Assembly: GCF_022458985.1 (NCBI RefSeq)
Contig: NC_061771.1
Location: 20,099,501-20,163,500, forward strand
DNA from: Mugil cephalus
Lineage: Eukaryota > Chordata > Actinopteri > Mugiliformes > Mugilidae
Length of the DNA stretch: 64,000 bases
Direction of reading: 5' to 3'
Position numbers and translations under genes: made by a program. Positions 18,970-32,890 of this stretch are shown here, one piece after another; positions within the stretch are counted from its first letter, which is position 1, and every line of letters begins with the position of its first letter. The notes beneath the pieces were generated by a model. It was not told the origin of the DNA and did not search any database. It saw only the letters and a program-made list of their open reading frames with translations.

Positions 18970-19800
18970 TAAAAAAACAAAACAAATGAATGAATAACCA
19001 GGTCTGTGTGAGAAGTAAAAGGAGAGAAAGTTCAGAGCTTTATCAGCTGTGTTTCAGAGTTCACATCAGGTCCGTCGGATACATTTCTTGAAACAAGGTG
19101 CAGGGTGCATTCCAGGAAATAGATGGCGGCAGGTAGTTGAATTATTAAACAGTGATGTAAGAGATTGTTTAGTAGAGACAGGGTGTATTCATTACAGCCG
19201 TGTGTGCTCTTTGCAGTCTGACAAATAGTGGTGGGAGAGAACAAAAGGACCAAAGATACAAAATAGAAAAAAATAAAAAGGTAGAAGTACAACAACAAAA
19301 AAGACGACATCGAAGGGAAAGTACTTCTGCTTCTTTTTCACTGTATTTGAACCAAGGGTGTTTTTTATCAGTTACTTGTAATGACTTTGTTCCTTTTAAA
19401 AATCTATACTCATCGATGCTCAGGTTGAATTTTTCTAACACTTTGGTGTGATGTGACATTATACGTTGTGTGAAAGCTGTTATTCTCATTACTCGTTATT
19501 ACCTATTATTAGAAATCACGGCAAAAGATGAACCATCTGGAGAAGATTAGTGAGTCATTCATCGGGTAAAAATGTCAAATATTCATTGGTTGAAATTCAT
19601 AAAGGTTCTAAGGACTTATGTTTTCACGGGCTGATCAGTGTCGTGATCATTTTGGTGTCAGAGTCGCAGCCTTGTGACAAAGTAGTTAAATATTAGATCC
19701 ACGTAACTTCAGTATAATGCAGCTTAAACGCTTCACATGAGCCATTTTTCTGATTTACACACATTTTAGCTAAGAAGTGAATGAATTGTATACAGGCAGG
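18970..19800. other. Intergenic stretch, nothing recognised
   Basis: AT-rich sequence between the sdk1 3' end and the probable first exon of the Gag-zinc-finger gene. I see no exon, RNA gene or clear repeat family here. Confidence 0.5.
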
Positions 19801-19815
19801 TGGTTGTCTTCCCAA

Positions 19816-19830
19816 CCAGCAGGGGTCGCT
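19816..19830 (+). promoter_or_regulatory. Candidate CTCF site
   Basis: CCAGCAGGGGTCGCT matches the CTCF core (CCASYAGRKGGCRS) except for one T in place of G. It lies between sdk1 and the Gag-zinc-finger gene. Motif match only. Confidence 0.4.
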
Positions 19831-19849
19831 GTGGAGGAGGAGGGGGCTG

Positions 19850-20087
19850 CCGGACCCCGGGAAGTGTTCTGTTGTCCCGAAGAAGGAGCACCAGCATGGC
19901 GGATAGATTTTCCACTTTATGCTCGTCTCTCCAGTCAAACGTTTTGTCTTGAGGCGTCACCAGAAGTGATTTATTAAAACCGTAACAAGCTGTGTGTTCA
20001 GGTCCAGGCAGGAGACCCCACCTCATCCCCCCTGTCTCTCTGTCCGCCCGAGTGGAGGTACCGAGACTTGTAACCCAGTTTGGTTCG
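19850..20087 (+). other. Probable noncoding first exon of the Gag-zinc-finger gene
   Basis: A locally GC-richer block ends in a good donor (TTCG followed by GTGAGT at 20088). The next strong acceptor is TTTTTTTTCTTCTGTAG ending at 21962, just upstream of the large coding exon. The left border is a guess; cDNA would be needed to fix it. Confidence 0.35.
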
Positions 20088-21962
20088 GTGAGTTTTCATC
20101 TCCTCCTCGACTAATGCCACCTTCTTATTATGTAGTCTGTATTGTCACCTCACAGACACACAAATAGCCAGGTCCAGATTAGCAGAAACAACCACAAGTT
20201 GCTTTTTGTTTGTTGTTGTTGTTGCTGTTGTTGTTGTTATTATTGATAGGCTGGACACAGATTTCAAAATCACAGTTTGTTTGTACACTAGACTCACACA
20301 GGAGTCAGTTTAATTCATTTCTTCATTTTTTTCTATTTAAATCTTAAATATGTAATTGTTCTGCAGGGAAAACACGTGTGTATCTCACAACATCTTCACT
20401 GACACTTATGTACAGTTTACCGCTTTTTTTAGATTAGATACTAACTAACACTAACTCGTTATTATTTAACTCTTCTGTCAGTGTCAGACTAAGCTACAGC
20501 TGTGATATCACGTCATTGATCTAAAGCAGAATACGACAAACCAGCAGTAATGTCACCACTTGTGGATTAGCCAGAGACGCTAAAGTCATGTTAAATATAA
20601 GATTTGATAAAGTCGTGGTCATTTACAGACTTCTTAAAGTCATATTGTTTTTGTTTTTAAAAAAAAGTCCCAGTGTTGATAACCTCCATCACAGCTTACA
20701 GGAACGAACCAAACAGAGAGGGGGGTCTTTGTGCACCAGTCAGTTTTAGATATAACTTTAAACATACAAGAAAAGGTATTTAAAAAAAAAAAATAAATAA
20801 TACATTTTGCCATTAAAGTGTAATCAAAAATTACTTACTCGTTTCTGTAGCTGTCTGTTTAGACATCTGAGATAATAATGGCCCCCTCCAGTTGAGCGAC
20901 GCCTCTGAGTGATCACTGCAGGTCATGGTGTTCTCCAGGACCAGACCCTCAGGCCACTGACAGGACCCCCAACAATTAACATCTGTAGTTAATCCCTCTT
21001 CAGCCCAGGGGCCCCGAAGGGCCTCAGACCTCCATAACTGGATCTGCGGTCAATGCAGGCTCCAACAGCGAACCTCTCGTGTGTAGTCGCTGGTTTGTTT
21101 GAACAGTTTCACTCAACTTACAGTGTTTGTGTTTTCAAAAGTTATACCTGATGGCAGATGGTTTTCATGAAGCTTTTCAAGGAAAACACATATTGAGTTT
21201 CATAATGAAATCACAACAATCATGTAGTTTCTCTGGTGTATAAACAAAAATTTCCAGGTATAAACTGGGTGCTGACATTTCTCACGCTGAGAAGTGATAA
21301 AACTCATTAGTAACATAGCCTGTGTGTCAAAGAGATCAGTGAATGGATGAGGCTGCTCTGCTTCTGTCAGCCAATGAGAAAATAGTATTTCTCCTTTCCA
21401 GGTGAAATAGTTGCGCCGCAATAGTCACACCTTCCACAATTTGTCCTTTATTATATTTATATACTAATATACTATTTTCAAACACACTTCATCCTCGTCC
21501 TGCTTAAAAAAAAAAAATCTCACTCCACTCCAGCCCTGCTGATAATAATATGAAATAGTAAAGCTGGAGCAGTTTGTCAACTGCAGCATCTCAAACGTGA
21601 AAGTTTGTGTTGTTAGATGAGAACTGATGACATCATAGGCTTTACGAGTCATTTTCACTAACTTCCAGTATTAAGAAAGAAATGTTTAACTGAAAATGAA
21701 AACAAATCTAATTTTAACAAACCATAAAATCTGACATTTTCAATTAGTATAAAACCAAACGATCCCACATAATCATAGATCATCGTCGTTTAAAACTGAC
21801 CTGAAAACACCTTCATGAACATAGGATCTATTGCAAGACTGCATCAGTTTCAGCCAGGTGTAGTCGGTGTAGTGAATAATTTAGTGCAACTTAGTGTAAT
21901 TGTGTATAAAGACATGTTGTCTGATTTGTGTTTGTTTTACCGTTCTTTTTTTTCTTCTGTAG
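20088..21962 (+). other. Probable 5' intron of the Gag-zinc-finger gene
   Basis: Bounded by the putative donor at 20088 and the strong acceptor at 21961-21962. Contains a short TTG-rich run near 20210-20240 and an A-rich run near 20780. No exon or recognised repeat family was seen. Confidence 0.4.
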
Positions 21963-21966
21963 GGAC

Positions 21967-22029
21967 ATGAGTGCCATGAAACATGGGGACTCTGAACACG
22001 AACCAGAGGATGACGTCTTAATTGAGTGA
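21967..22029 (+). promoter_or_regulatory. Upstream ORF in the leader, in frame with the main ORF
   Basis: ATG at 21967 opens 20 codons and stops at TGA 22027-22029. The start is 123 bases (41 codons) before the main ATG, so it shares its frame. No other stop lies between this TGA and 22090. It may lower translation of the main ORF; that is inference. Confidence 0.6.
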
Positions 22030-22089: not shown

Positions 22090-25000
22090 ATGGGAGAAGT
22101 GAAGGTGGAACTAGATGAGGAGGAGCAGACGAAACACGACTTCTCGTCGGCGCCACTCCCGGAGCCGCTGCTCTTAATCCTCTCCCCGCCTCCACCTTTC
22201 CTGACGGTCCCCGGTGAGCCGACCATGCTTTGGCCGAAATGGCTGAAAGCCTTTGAACACTACATCAAAGGTCTCGGTGAAAAGGAGCTTGCCGACTCCA
22301 CAAAGTGTTTGCTCTTACAGAACTGCCTCGGCCCGGAGGGGGAGCGGATCTTCACAACTCTGATCCGAGGTGAGAGCACGTACGCGGCAGCCGTCTCCAC
22401 CCTGACTGTTTACTTCACCTCCGATAGCAGCGCTCAAGCGCGGCGCCTTAGATTCCACCAAAGGTCTCAGATGCCTGGAGAGACGGTGGATCAGTTCGTC
22501 TCCGCTTTAGAAGAGTTGCTGAGGCCTTGCGGCTATGGAAACTTACAGGACAAACTTATCCTGGATCAGCTGATTGAAAAGACGAACTACCCACAGCTCA
22601 GAGAGAGGCTGCTGCAAGCGAGAGAAACTTTAACGTTGGCCTCGGCGTTAGTCGTCGGTAAAGACGTGGAATCTCAGCTGTTTGATGTTCACGAGGTCAG
22701 CGTGTACATCGGAGACGACTTGCAACCCTCCGCTAAAAGAAAAGCTAGAAGAGGAAGGCCTCGGCGCGGGGAGGAAAGGAAGCAAACAAAACCCTGTTTG
22801 ACTAAAACGCTAACACGAGTCAAAGACGACTACTACTACAGCAAAGATAAGCAGTATTACAGTGATAACGATGAGAAGGAGATTAAGAGGAAGGATGAGG
22901 CTGATAAGGTAGGTGATGACGATGATGATAATGGAGAATCATCATCGTCATTTGAGGTCAAAGATGAAGATTACGACAACGTCGACAGTGACAACGACGC
23001 TGACGATCGTGACGACGACGATTACGGCGTCTTGTCTCCGACGGCGCAAAAAGGCCACCGCTGTCCCTTCTGCAACAGCAGGCCCTTCAGAGATACGCAC
23101 AAGCTCGCCAGACACATGAGGATGCACACGAAGGAGAAACCGTACGCCTGCCCGGTCTGCGCCGTGACCTTCAGCCAGTCCTACCACATGACCCGGCACC
23201 TGAGGAACCAGCACAGCGCCGGCCCGCACATCTGCAGCACCTGCGGGGAAAGCTTGGCGAGCCCCGCGGAGCTGCTGACGCACAGGAGGACGCACAAGCC
23301 TCGGGTTCTGTCGTGCACGGCGTGCGAGGAAACGTTCACCAACAGCGGTGAACTTTCCAGTCACATCATGACACACAGCGAAAAGACGGCCACGCAGCAG
23401 GGAGGAAGTTTGGAGGACGCCGATGAAACTGGATGTAAAAATGAAGACGTAGCTAATGGCGATTCTAAGGGCAAAGCGTCTGAAGACGTGGATACGACAG
23501 AAGAGAAGAACTCGGATGAAGCTGAATCTCAAAATGGAGACGGGAAGAAAAAAACAGCCACCTCCGAAACCAAGAGAAAGGGACATTACTGTCCCATCTG
23601 CGTCGGGCGACGCTTCAGAGGTGCGAACAAACTCGCCAGACACATGAGGACACATACGAAGGAGAAACCCTTCAGCTGCCCGGTCTGCGCCTTGACCTTC
23701 AGCCAGTCCTACCACATGACCCGACACGTGAGGAACCAGCACGGCTTGGGCGAATACATCTGCTCTAAATGCGGGGAGAGTCTCGGCAGCTTGCTGGAAC
23801 TGAAAGCCCACAGGAAGACCCATGTAATCGAAGGCCTCACGTGTTTCGCGTGCAACAAACAGTTCAAGGAGAAGTCGGCCCTGGCGAGTCATCTCAAATT
23901 GCACAAGAAGGTCGAGTCCAGCCCTCGAAGCCTCGTCTGCGGCGACTGCGGCAAAGTATTCGGCCGGCTGTATCATCTGAAGAGGCACATAGTGACTCAC
24001 CGGAAAGAAGCGGATGCCGAGTGTTACACGTGTCCCGATTGTCACAAGGTCTTCGCCTTCCCAGAAGACCTCAACAAACACCTGGAGATCCACGTGAAAG
24101 AAAACAGCGGGACTTGTCCTAAATGTGACGAAACCTTCGGTAGCCCGGAGGAGCTGGAGACGCACATGGGGGTTCACCAGAAGTCTTACAGCTGCAGCAC
24201 CTGCGAGAAGAAGTTTAAGGTGGAGTACGCCCTGAAGAAGCACGAGCAAGGTCACCTCAGCGAGCAGTATTACTGCTCGCTGTGCCGCAAGCGCTTCCTC
24301 AAGCTTTCTCACTACAAGAGACACGTGCTGGTCCACAAAAGGCGAGAATCTAGATGCCCACACTGCGACGGCGTTTTTCTGCAGCTAACGGCTTTGAAGT
24401 ATCACCTGCGGACTCACACCGAGGAGAGACCGTACCAGTGCTCTTGTTGCATCGAAACCTTCGAAGAGAAGGAAGCTCTAGAGCAGCATTGCCTCAAACA
24501 CCGGAAGTTCAAGAAGGAGAAGCCGTACTCGTGCACTCGGTGCGACTTTGCTTTCTCCACGCTGATCGAGCTAACGGAGCACATGGGCTCGCACGAGGGG
24601 GAGCAGCCCATGACTTGCCCGGTGTGCGGCAGGACTTTCCTGAACAAGAACAAGCTGGACAAGCACCTGTCGATCCACACGGGGGAGAGGCCTCACCTCT
24701 GCTCCGTCTGCGGCAACGGCTTCCCGTCGGCCGCCAGCCTCAAGCTGCACATCCACGTTCACACCGGGGAGAAGCCCTTTCAGTGCGCGCAGTGCAGCAA
24801 GAGCTTCAGGTCGTCCAGTGGGCTGCGTCTCCACAGCAGGCAGCACATGGAGGTGCGACCCAGCTACGAGTGTCCCGAGTGCGGGCGGACGTACGGCCGC
24901 ATGACGGAGCTGAAGATGCACCAGCGTTACCACACGGGAGATAAACCGTACGCGTGCTCCTGCTGCAACAAGCGCTTCATTAGCAAGGACAAACTCAACG

Positions 25001-25107
25001 TACACATGAGGATACACACGGGGGAGAGGCCTTACTCCTGCCCTCACTGCGCGCAGACATTCACACAGACCGGGGACAGAAACAGACACGTCAGTAAATA
25101 CCACTAG
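22090..25107 (+). CDS. Gag capsid-like domain fused to 22 C2H2 zinc fingers
   Basis: Intact 1005-residue frame in one exon; probably a nuclear DNA-binding protein. Residues about 45-195 resemble the Ty3/gypsy Gag capsid: WPKWLKAFEHYI, then LLLQNCLGPEGERIF, then RRLRFHQRSQMPGETVDQFV (about 118-137), then LILDQLIEKTNYPQLRERLL. An AT-hook (RGRPRRG) lies at about 221-227, and an Asp/Glu-rich stretch at about 250-312. C2H2 fingers 1-4 start at Cys325, a charged linker covers about 430-496, and fingers 5-22 run to the C-terminus. Linkers are TGE(K/R)P or TKEKP-like. No protease, reverse transcriptase, integrase or flanking LTR was seen, so this looks like a host gene that captured a gag domain. The ATG at 22090 is the first in frame after the upstream TGA. 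A SCAN domain was considered; the long Gag-type block fits better. No orthologue name is offered. Confidence 0.85.
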   Translation: MGEVKVELDEEEQTKHDFSSAPLPEPLLLILSPPPPFLTVPGEPTMLWPKWLKAFEHYIKGLGEKELADSTKCLLLQNCLGPEGERIFTTLIRGESTYAAAVSTLTVYFTSDSSAQARRLRFHQRSQMPGETVDQFVSALEELLRPCGYGNLQDKLILDQLIEKTNYPQLRERLLQARETLTLASALVVGKDVESQLFDVHEVSVYIGDDLQPSAKRKARRGRPRRGEERKQTKPCLTKTLTRVKDDYYYSKDKQYYSDNDEKEIKRKDEADKVGDDDDDNGESSSSFEVKDEDYDNVDSDNDADDRDDDDYGVLSPTAQKGHRCPFCNSRPFRDTHKLARHMRMHTKEKPYACPVCAVTFSQSYHMTRHLRNQHSAGPHICSTCGESLASPAELLTHRRTHKPRVLSCTACEETFTNSGELSSHIMTHSEKTATQQGGSLEDADETGCKNEDVANGDSKGKASEDVDTTEEKNSDEAESQNGDGKKKTATSETKRKGHYCPICVGRRFRGANKLARHMRTHTKEKPFSCPVCALTFSQSYHMTRHVRNQHGLGEYICSKCGESLGSLLELKAHRKTHVIEGLTCFACNKQFKEKSALASHLKLHKKVESSPRSLVCGDCGKVFGRLYHLKRHIVTHRKEADAECYTCPDCHKVFAFPEDLNKHLEIHVKENSGTCPKCDETFGSPEELETHMGVHQKSYSCSTCEKKFKVEYALKKHEQGHLSEQYYCSLCRKRFLKLSHYKRHVLVHKRRESRCPHCDGVFLQLTALKYHLRTHTEERPYQCSCCIETFEEKEALEQHCLKHRKFKKEKPYSCTRCDFAFSTLIELTEHMGSHEGEQPMTCPVCGRTFLNKNKLDKHLSIHTGERPHLCSVCGNGFPSAASLKLHIHVHTGEKPFQCAQCSKSFRSSSGLRLHSRQHMEVRPSYECPECGRTYGRMTELKMHQRYHTGDKPYACSCCNKRFISKDKLNVHMRIHTGERPYSCPHCAQTFTQTGDRNRHVSKYH

Positions 25108-26064: not shown

Positions 26065-26185
26065 GTCTTGTAATAATATTATGTACGTCCTCATTTCACT
26101 TTTTGATATCTTTGATGGTGCTTTTCTGTAAGGAAGCATTTTGTGTTTTGAGAAGTGCCAAAAAATAAAGCTGTTATTCACTTGA
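25108..26185 (+). other. 3' untranslated region of the Gag-zinc-finger gene
   Basis: About 1.1 kb after the TAG, ending near the AATAAA at 26164. It includes a T/G-rich run near 26030-26065. No pol-like coding remnant was seen. Confidence 0.55.
26164..26169 (+). terminator. Poly(A) signal of the Gag-zinc-finger gene
   Basis: AATAAA in AAAAATAAAGCTG, about 1.06 kb after the stop codon; the best signal before gpank1. Confidence 0.5.
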
Positions 26186-30834: not shown

Positions 30835-32890
30835 CTGTCGGTAAAACTGATTGTTAATTTGGATTCAGAGAAAACATTATCACATGGATACGCCTTCTTT
30901 TTACATCACCCTTTGCCCATGTTAACACAAATAGGCAGTACTCATCATATTTTCCCGTCAAGGCTGCCCGCTGTCGCCGTTGCTTCTTGCTCTTGCTATT
31001 GAGCCGCTAGCCATACGGTTGAGATCTTCTGCACATCTGCAAGGTGTTAAACGGGGAAACATTGAGCATCGGGTCTCCCTGTATGCAGATGATCTATTAA
31101 TCTATATAACAGACCCTGTTACGTGTGCCAGTAATTTCATTCAGATACTAGATGATTTTGGTACAAATCAACCTCCAAAAAACTGTTTCCCAATTAACTC
31201 TAAAGCCAAAACACTCACGCAGGGACAGATTCCTTTTAATTTCTGTCCAGAAAGTTTTCAATATCTGGGGATCAACATCACCCACTCTTTTAAGGAGTTG
31301 CATAAATATAACATTGAGAAATTGATAAATAAAGTCAAAACTGACCTACAGGGTGGTCTAAGTTGTCGTTAGCAGGCAGAGTCCAGTGCATAAAGATGGA
31401 TATCTTGCCAAGATTTTTGTTTGTTTTCCAATGTTTACCTCTCTTACTGACTAAAACATTCTTTAAAAGACTCGATCAAGTTACTCTTTCATTCCTGTGG
31501 GTGGACAAGGCAGCCAGGATTATTAAAAGCGCACTACAGTCAGCAAGGCAGGAGGGTGGACTGGGCCTATCTAACTTTATGTTATACCACTGGGCAGCAA
31601 ATATACAAAAGATACTCTGCTGGTGGTGTGAAAGTGAGTTAGACTGGTGTAAAATGGAGTCCCTTTCGGCCACACCTCTTCACTTGTGGCTCTGACATGC
31701 TTCCCTTTACCATTCTCAGTTTTGTCATATTATACCTCAAATCCTGTAACTATGAAAATATGGACAGTTTTGCAAACATTTCAAGCTAAGCAATCTTGTC
31801 CTCCCAGCTCCGTTATGCAATAATCATGCTTTTTTTTTACCCACTAAACTTGACTCTGCATTTGCACTCTGGAAGGAGAAAGGTATCATATCCTTCTGAG
31901 ATCTGTTTTTAAATGGTACATTTGTTGATTTTAAGACTCGGTCCCATAAGCATGACTTTCCCCAGACCAACTTCTTTCAAGATCATTGCAGCACATTCCC
32001 ACATTTACCGGCAGATTTATCTAAAATTCTTGACAAACCAGAAACTTGGACAAAAATGATATCAAATCTGTACTCGGGCCTTTTCCAGGCTAACTCCTCT
32101 TCACAGATCACAACAAAACAGGGGTGGGAATAAGAGCTAGGAGTCCTACTCCAGGATGCTTTGTGGGAGAGACACGAATTACAAGTGAATAACTCCACAT
32201 CCTGTGCCCGTCTTAACTCAATACAGTTCAAAGTACTGCATAGAATGCATTTCAGCAAAGCAAAACTAGCAAAGATTTTTCCTCGCAATAGTGAAGCTTG
32301 CAATAGATGTGCCTTTGTCCCAGCTGACTTAGCCCATAGTTTCTGGTCATGCTCGAAGCTAACAGGGTTCTGGAAGAACTTTTTCAAGATCATATCAGTT
32401 CTAGGTGTAGCTATCTCTCCCTGTCTGCTCATTGCTATTTTTGGAGTTCCCTCAAATTACTCCGAATTCAGTAAGCAGACGGTAAGCATTCAGTAAGCAT
32501 GTTTTAGCATTTGCCTCTCTGATTGTCTGCAGGTGTATCCTTCTGCACTGGACCCTAAACCCCCAACAGAACAATCTTGGCAGGCTGACCTAAGGAATGA
32601 CGTTGTTTAAATTAGAAAAGAAAAAATTTTCACTCTGAGGGTCAACTGAGAAATTCTATACTACATGATAACCTCTTATGTCATATTTTGATAATGTAGT
32701 TACAACCCCTACGGTGTAGGAGTGAACAACACATTCTGTTTTTTTTGTCTAACTGTGCTCTTACATCAATATGAATGTAGAAATATAAGGTGGTTGATGA
32801 GATATTCTGTTTGAAAAGGGACGACTAACTGGGGTGGGTTTTTGTTTTGAATGTTTTCTACTTGTTTGTTTACTTTCAGAAAAAAAAAAA
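30835..32890 (+). mobile_element. 5'-truncated, decayed L1-type LINE
   Basis: Pieces of an L1-clade reverse transcriptase are readable in shifting frames. LIVNLDSEK (the LDxEKAF block) lies near 30850, QGCPLSPLL-like near 30960, and YADDLLIY (the catalytic YADD) near 31080. After these come the L1 C-terminal landmarks LAGRVQCIKMDILPRFLFVF near 31370 and CNRCAFVPADLAHSFWSC near 32300. Frameshifts, stops and an internal deletion before the QGCP block make it non-functional. An A-rich tail at about 32880-32890 marks the probable 3' end. It lies on the + strand between gpank1 and cyp3a. Confidence 0.82.

What the first reader, a model, noticed from the sequence alone, without database searches (positions are those of the whole stretch)
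22090..25107. Gag capsid-like domain captured by a 22-finger C2H2 protein
One intact 1005-codon frame joins a Ty3/gypsy-type Gag capsid pattern, an AT-hook, an acidic region and 22 zinc fingers. Reverse transcriptase, integrase and LTRs are absent, so this looks like a domesticated host gene rather than a live element. The design parallels SCAN-zinc-finger proteins, whose SCAN domain is also thought to derive from a gypsy-like Gag, but this N-terminus does not look like SCAN. That suggests a second, independent capture in fish. A capsid domain could give dimer or multimer assembly on DNA (inference).
Basis: partly seen in the sequence, partly recalled or inferred. Interest (0 to 1): 0.75.

Follow-up and report, generated by a model that had tools for sequence, protein, structure and literature searches.

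The report
Retrotransposon Gag fused to zinc fingers
A vertebrate, probably fish, gene joins a capsid domain taken from a jumping element to 22 zinc fingers, a design like that of the SCAN zinc-finger proteins of mammals but from another source; its function is inferred, not measured.

Summary
Window 22090-25107 is one open frame of 1005 codons with a Gag-like N-terminus, an RGRP AT-hook core, acidic linkers and 22 C2H2 fingers. Pfam alone is weak: PNMA E=1.6e-4, below its cut-off, no Retrotrans_gag or SCAN match. The host genome settles the origin: the Gag part matches a decayed Ty3/gypsy element at E=1.1e-27, 40% over 167 residues. One sister copy has reverse transcriptase; another Gag relative has RNase H and integrase. 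A Gag profile reaches Drosophila Arc capsids (E=0.00095). Of 64 other Gag matches, 29 were inspected: 0 have C2H2 fingers within 1.5 kb, 14 have a CCHC knuckle. No LTR pair or pol domain was found within 5 kb. Best reading: a domesticated host gene, probably a nuclear DNA-binding factor that pairs through its capsid-derived domain, parallel to SCAN-ZNFs but from another gypsy Gag lineage. Orthologues, expression and structure could not be tested, and earlier description cannot be excluded. A new variant of a known kind.

The parts
19860..20087 (+). possible non-coding 5' exon (start uncertain), ending at a consensus donor G|GTGAGT
   Evidence: read by eye; no transcript evidence; CpG o/e 0.65-0.72 in 19800-20099, no strong island
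20088..21962 (+). possible 5'UTR intron (GTGAGT ... pyrimidine tract-TAG)
   Evidence: read by eye; inference
21967..22029 (+). upstream ORF of 20 codons in the main frame, closed by TGA 20 codons before the main ATG
22090..25107 (+). Gag-C2H2 coding frame, 1005 aa
22180..22674 (+). Ty3/gypsy Gag capsid domain, residues 31-195
   Evidence: E=1.1e-27 to a gypsy Gag in the same genome; alignment A1; Arc1 profile hit; PNMA E=1.6e-4, below cut-off
22444..22665 (+). part of the Gag domain that aligns with SCAN (residues 119-192)
   Evidence: hhalign A1 vs A2: E=0.0013, probability 18%; best of 10 shuffled controls E=0.02
22735..22770 (+). basic stretch with AT-hook core RGRP, possible nuclear localisation signal
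   Evidence: by eye; no CCHC motif in the locus L032, CCHC in 14 of 29 inspected relatives
22861..23049 (+). acidic linker, residues 258-320, 27 D/E of 63
23062..23376 (+). C2H2 fingers 1-4
23401..23580 (+). second linker, residues 438-497, 17 D/E and 10 K/R of 60
23590..25104 (+). C2H2 fingers 5-22; the four TGEKP-type linkers follow fingers 17, 18, 20 and 21
23049..23294 (+). finger block, copy 1 of an internal duplication (76% identical to copy 2)
   Evidence: dN/dS 0.11-0.50 by four methods
23577..23822 (+). finger block, copy 2
26164..26169 (+). AATAAA polyadenylation signal candidate
   Evidence: read by eye

Best explanation
This is a host gene in which the capsid part of a Ty3/gypsy Gag became the N-terminal domain of a 22-finger C2H2 protein. 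The Gag nucleocapsid knuckle is missing; a basic AT-hook stretch and C2H2 fingers stand in its place. Most likely mechanism (inferred): the protein enters the nucleus, the fingers (above all the regular C-terminal run) bind specific DNA, and the capsid-derived domain pairs copies of the protein, as SCAN does in mammals, so that two finger arrays act together in gene regulation or in silencing of repeats. Shown here: Gag ancestry, fusion in one intact frame, no LTR or pol remnant within 5 kb, no C2H2 fingers at the 29 other Gag loci inspected, and constraint on the duplicated finger block. Inferred: nuclear location, DNA binding, dimerisation and regulatory role.
For: Gag part vs own genome: E=1.1e-27, 40% over 167 aa, to a decayed gypsy element. 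That element has a 196-bp direct repeat at 91% bounding about 5.4 kb and a CCHC knuckle. Sister copies align to it at 85-97% DNA identity in pieces; the one scanned, L035, has RVT_1 at E=9.2e-11. Another Gag relative, L034, has RNase H, Integrase_H2C2 and rve. The profile of 17 rows (window plus 16 of the 29 other loci) finds Drosophila Arc1 (E=0.00095, 0.0017) and Arc2 (0.024). C2H2 fingers near other Gag loci: 0 of 29. No LTR or pol within 5 kb. In the full-protein search every other match begins at residue 474 or later (46 of 1094 first-look candidates scored); in the Gag search all 66 candidates were scored. Against the nearest element, codon positions 1, 2, 3 differ at 0.50, 0.36, 0.67 over 161 codons, yet the frame is intact; under drift at 0.3 changes per site the Gag part stays stop-free in 1% of 1000 runs and the whole frame in 0 of 150. 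Finger block dN/dS below 1 by four methods. Capsid-to-SCAN profile similarity E=0.0013.
Against: No orthologue, transcript or structure could be examined. Pfam's Gag models do not reach their cut-offs on this sequence. The constraint test on the Gag part is indirect: at 0.1 or 0.2 changes per site drift leaves it stop-free in 13% or 3% of runs, and third-position saturation partly reflects selection in the elements. The dimer idea rests on a weak profile match (probability 18%). Besides zinc-finger-type models and the weak PNMA match, the Pfam scan showed no effector domain such as KRAB or BTB. The element locus L033 itself gave no Pfam pol match within 1.5 kb.
Confidence: 0.68

Rival explanations
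1. Fv1-like restriction or silencing factor: the Gag-derived part joins the Gag assemblies of related gypsy elements or retroviruses in trans and poisons them, while the fingers recognise element DNA.
For: Gypsy-type Gags survive in the same genome; Fv1 is a Gag-derived restriction gene (PMC3424704, passages).
Against: The closest element family is decayed, with stops or frame breaks in the nearest copies. Gag identity of about 40% seems low for co-assembly (inference). No target tested.
Confidence: 0.15
2. Capsid-forming protein: the Gag part still assembles shells as Arc and PNMA2 do (recalled), and the fingers replace the knuckle as cargo binder.
For: Nearly the whole Gag capsid region aligns with element Gag; profile hit to Arc1 and Arc2 entries.
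Against: The PDB match covers about 60 positions, and PNMA2 (E=1.2) ranks below three unrelated chance hits. A 1005-aa protein with acidic linkers and 22 fingers is awkward inside a shell (inference). AT-hook and basic stretch suggest a nuclear protein.
Confidence: 0.08
3. Part of a mobile element whose Gag had already acquired C2H2 fingers.
For: Gag and fingers share one frame without an intron. A zebrafish survey reports 45 'Znf' domain sequences among 1119 gag genes (PMC8672886, passages); the kind of finger is not stated in the passages seen.
Against: No LTR or pol; no second Gag-finger unit found; 0 of 29 inspected relatives with fingers; neighbours are ordinary host genes.
Confidence: 0.04
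4. Chance or decaying fusion without function.
For: Expression untested.
Against: 1005 open codons, drift simulation, finger constraint.
Confidence: 0.04
5. A diverged member of the SCAN family itself.
For: In-register remote similarity to SCAN, E=0.0013.
Against: SCAN model does not match the window, nor the Gag relatives in the alignment at E<=0.01.
Confidence: 0.02

Closest known systems
SCAN zinc-finger proteins (ZSCAN, e.g. ZNF24, PEG3)
   Same: Gag-derived N-terminal domain plus C2H2 fingers; remote alignment between the two Gag-derived domains
   Different: No SCAN match; nearly the whole capsid region is kept, whereas SCAN is described as only the C-terminal part of capsid (PMC3406341, passages); different gypsy source
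Arc and PNMA families
   Same: Domesticated Ty3/gypsy capsid domain; profile reaches Arc1 and Arc2 in the PDB; PNMA Pfam at E=1.6e-4
   Different: Those proteins carry no C2H2 array (recalled); the PNMA match is below the curated cut-off
Ty3/gypsy Gag of the same genome (L033/L070, L035/L072, L041/L073)
   Same: 40% identity over 167 aa for L033; similar N-terminal start in all three
   Different: Elements have knuckle (L033, L041) and pol (L035), are repeated and broken
Relic at L071 (C1:294912-295364)
   Same: Closest kin in the core: 49-51% over about 58 aa; groups with the window at 98/95 support on 65 columns
   Different: Broken by stops and frame changes; no finger or knuckle motif within 1.5 kb

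Membership tests
SCAN zinc-finger family | SCAN domain (PF02023) | tested here: not met
   No match listed at E<=10 for the Gag part; window absent from 124 genome matches at E<=0.1
SCAN zinc-finger family | C2H2 fingers C-terminal to the Gag-derived domain | tested here: met
   22 fingers
SCAN zinc-finger family | dimerisation through that domain | not tested
   structure prediction answered busy in all 30 calls (first 15, last 116); no assay possible
Gag-derived (Ty3/gypsy) domesticated genes | significant similarity to Gag of elements with pol or LTRs | tested here: met
Gag-derived (Ty3/gypsy) domesticated genes | no LTRs or pol at the locus | tested here: met
   (5 kb either side for pol)
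Gag-derived (Ty3/gypsy) domesticated genes | orthologues at the same site in several species | not testable with these tools
   of eukaryote genomes only the window's own was reachable
Gag-derived (Ty3/gypsy) domesticated genes | purifying selection on the captured domain | tested here: inconclusive
   codon-position pattern and drift simulation agree with it, but no orthologue dN/dS
PNMA family | PNMA domain over its cut-off | tested here: not met
   21.6 bits against 25
Retrotrans_gag family (PF03732) | match to the model | tested here: not met
   no match for the window (not among 48 genome matches at E<=0.001), though 5 of 17 rows of A1 match at E<=0.01

The most novel reading that the evidence does not exclude
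A second, independent invention of the capsid-plus-zinc-finger factor in a lineage outside amniotes, in which nearly the whole gypsy capsid domain was kept, so that the protein could form higher-order assemblies (hexamers or patches, not only dimers) on DNA chosen by 22 fingers.
Probability: 0.2. Interest if true: 0.8.

Novelty: new variant of a known kind. Interest (0 to 1): 0.55.

Why it matters
SCAN-ZNFs are the best-known case (recalled, and PMC3406341 passages) of a retrotransposon capsid turned into a module for zinc-finger factors. A separate capture from another gypsy Gag would show that the combination evolves repeatedly, and would give a natural comparison: which part of a capsid has to be kept in a DNA-binding protein, and whether dimer or lattice assembly is what is selected.

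Tried and rejected
Relatives of the Gag part in viral contigs and genome contigs: none confirmed; in phages: best E=0.6, chance. Motif scans gave 2 and 1 viral and 20 prokaryote stretches; the 2 were checked by tblastn and are chance, the other 21 were not checked further. phmmer of the Gag part against the PDB: one chance hit at E=0.35. Reversed and shuffled controls: 0 of 4 matched PNMA (6 had been made, 4 were scanned). Gag-like sequence within 1.5 kb of the 7 best other finger loci: none (best E=5.6). FOXK-type FHA region vs PDB: no hit at E<=0.001. Structure prediction was asked for 30 times and always answered 'busy', so no fold search was made. The tree holds the same stretch twice (L040 and L071), so its 100/99 pair is trivial. 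The alignment A1 took 16 of the 29 other Gag loci. Paper searches for a Gag-C2H2 fusion in fish; no such report seen in the listings, but a zebrafish survey mentions 'Znf' domains at gag loci, and Emerson and Thomas 2011 and Wang and Han 2021 (which I recall as covering co-opted gag in fishes) are not held, so prior mention cannot be excluded.

Full report
What is there. Window 22090-25107 (+) is one open frame of 1005 codons, far longer than composition gives: 300 order-2 simulations had a mean longest frame of 157 and a maximum of 466. The order of parts is: short N-terminus, Gag-like region (residues 31-195), basic stretch with AT-hook core RGRP (221-224), acidic linker (258-320, 27 D/E of 63), fingers 1-4, a second linker, and fingers 5-22. 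Twenty fingers have the 12-residue loop and two have 13. No CCHC motif was found in the locus L032, which holds the Gag part and 1.5 kb on either side.

Is it Gag? By single-sequence profiles only weakly: PNMA at E=1.6e-4, 21.6 bits against a cut-off of 25, and no Retrotrans_gag or SCAN listed at E<=10. One reversed and three shuffled versions gave no PNMA match. The host genome was decisive. It is held as G000, 634.8 Mb in 24 contigs, with the window on C2. The Gag part (173 aa) has 65 matches at E<=10, itself included; 24 others reach E<=1e-3. The best other is E=1.1e-27, 40% over 167 residues, on C7. That locus is a decayed LTR element: a 196-bp direct repeat at 91% bounds about 5.4 kb, with Gag next to one repeat and a CCHC knuckle after it. 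Two sister copies on C5 align to it or to each other at 85-97% in pieces. The one scanned has RVT_1 at E=9.2e-11 about 1 kb after Gag; the C7 locus itself gave no Pfam pol match within 1.5 kb. A further relative on C2 has RNase H, Integrase_H2C2 and rve. In the alignment of the window with 16 of the 29 other fetched loci, 5 of 17 rows match Retrotrans_gag and 2 of 17 match PNMA at E<=0.01. Its profile finds Drosophila Arc1 (E=0.00095 and 0.0017) and Arc2 (0.024) among solved structures; PNMA2 at 1.2 is not significant and ranks below three unrelated hits.

Is it an element or a host gene? About 5 kb on either side, in six frames with stops as X, gave no Gag, protease, RT, RNase H or integrase at E<=0.1; only sub-cut-off ankyrin signal downstream and one chance-level DUF. 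No LTR pair was found in 12-36 kb by the ungapped repeat search. An RT relic at 30935-31372 (RVT_1 E=2.1e-8) is non-LTR by eye. In the full-protein search every other match begins at residue 474 or later, i.e. in the fingers; that search scored 46 of 1094 candidates, so the Gag search, which scored all 66 of its candidates, is the better test of uniqueness. Loci were fetched for 29 of the 64 other Gag matches: 0 of 29 have a strict C2H2 motif within 1.5 kb, and 14 of 29 have a CCHC motif. None of the 7 best finger loci has the Gag within 1.5 kb. Neighbours are a CYP3A-like P450 (PDB match to CYP3A4/5/7), an FHA region and a forkhead region that together suggest FOXK (the FHA part had no PDB hit), and a G-patch gene with ankyrin signal, GPANK1 by recall. 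Upstream is an fn3 gene (24.6 bits, just under the cut-off of 25) whose C-terminal tail I recognise from memory as Sidekick. PMC3012610 (passages) places fish CYP3 genes of region CYP3HR1 beside FOXK1, so the neighbourhood looks conserved. No tool names the species; 'fish' is inference from genome size, number of contigs and this neighbourhood.

Is it under constraint? Against the nearest element, mismatches at codon positions 1, 2, 3 are 0.50, 0.36, 0.67 over 161 codons, and blastn of the gene region against the four larger element loci finds nothing, so the split is old. Drift simulation (substitutions only): the Gag part stays stop-free in 13%, 3%, 1% and 0.3% of 1000 runs at 0.1, 0.2, 0.3 and 0.5 changes per site, and the whole frame in 0 of 150 at each. 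An internal duplication of a finger block (23049-23294 and 23577-23822, 76%) gives dN/dS of 0.33, 0.50, 0.11 and 0.12 by NG86, LWL85, YN00 and ML. This supports selection on the fingers; for the Gag part the argument is indirect.

Nearest kin. A relic on C1 (L071) shares 49-51% over about 58 residues and some features not seen in the C7 family. It groups with the window at 98/95 on a short alignment of 65 columns, in which the relic appears twice, and the C7 element joins at 94/91. It is broken and has no finger or knuckle motif within 1.5 kb. It may be a relic of the donor element family or of a copy of the gene; the data do not decide.

Relation to SCAN. SCAN matches 124 places in this genome at E<=0.1, not the window. 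The 8 loci fetched have no C2H2 motif and 5 of 8 have a CCHC knuckle, as expected for retroelements. PMC8672886 (passages) reports SCAN, PNMA and 'Znf' domains at gag loci of zebrafish elements, and PMC3406341 (passages) describes SCAN as the C-terminal part of a Gmr1-like capsid, joined to fingers in the Anolis lizard. PMC11011659 (passages) notes that its capsid profiles did not detect human SCAN proteins. Profile comparison of the present Gags with five SCAN domains of this genome aligns 74 columns in register, E=0.0013 but probability only 18%; ten column-shuffled controls gave best E=0.02. So the domain is probably a cousin of SCAN through Gag, not a SCAN domain.

How it probably works. 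The PEG3 SCAN domain forms a stable dimer, and SCAN dimers resemble a domain-swapped retroviral capsid C-terminal domain (PMC3720700, passages). By analogy, the capsid part here would pair or assemble copies of the protein, the basic stretch would bring it into the nucleus, and the finger array, whose four TGEKP-type linkers all lie near the C-terminal end, would bind DNA. That is inference; no structure could be predicted because the service stayed full (30 calls). A silencing or restriction role and a capsid-forming role remain open rivals.

Limits. No orthologue, transcript or structure; Gag copies found by PF03732 (48) and PF14893 (32) were not inspected for fingers. Prior description of this fusion cannot be excluded, since key papers are not held.

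Noticed in passing
window 21967-22029: Upstream ORF of 20 codons in the same frame as the main ORF, ended by TGA; possible translational control.
   Followed up: partly
window 30935-31372: Relic of a reverse transcriptase, non-LTR (LINE) type by eye, between the G-patch gene and the P450 region (RVT_1 E=2.1e-8); further open pieces that look like it run to about 32496 (not scanned).
   Followed up: partly
G000, 124 places; L062-L069: Many SCAN-domain matches, some in frames over 1000 codons; 5 of the 8 fetched loci have CCHC knuckles: probably retroelement Gags that keep a SCAN-like domain.
   Followed up: partly
L071 4713-5165 (C1:294912-295364): Broken Gag relic that is the closest kin of the window's Gag; origin (donor element or dead gene copy) open.
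   Followed up: partly
G000 C10:5334714, C11:208314, C13:26711124, C5:13406859: Four Retrotrans_gag matches inside 1443-codon open frames, a seemingly young gypsy family.
   Followed up: no
window 23049-23294 and 23577-23822: Internal duplication of a three-finger block; the contact residues of the middle finger are identical (QYHR) and those of the outer two agree at 2 of 4 positions each.
   Followed up: partly
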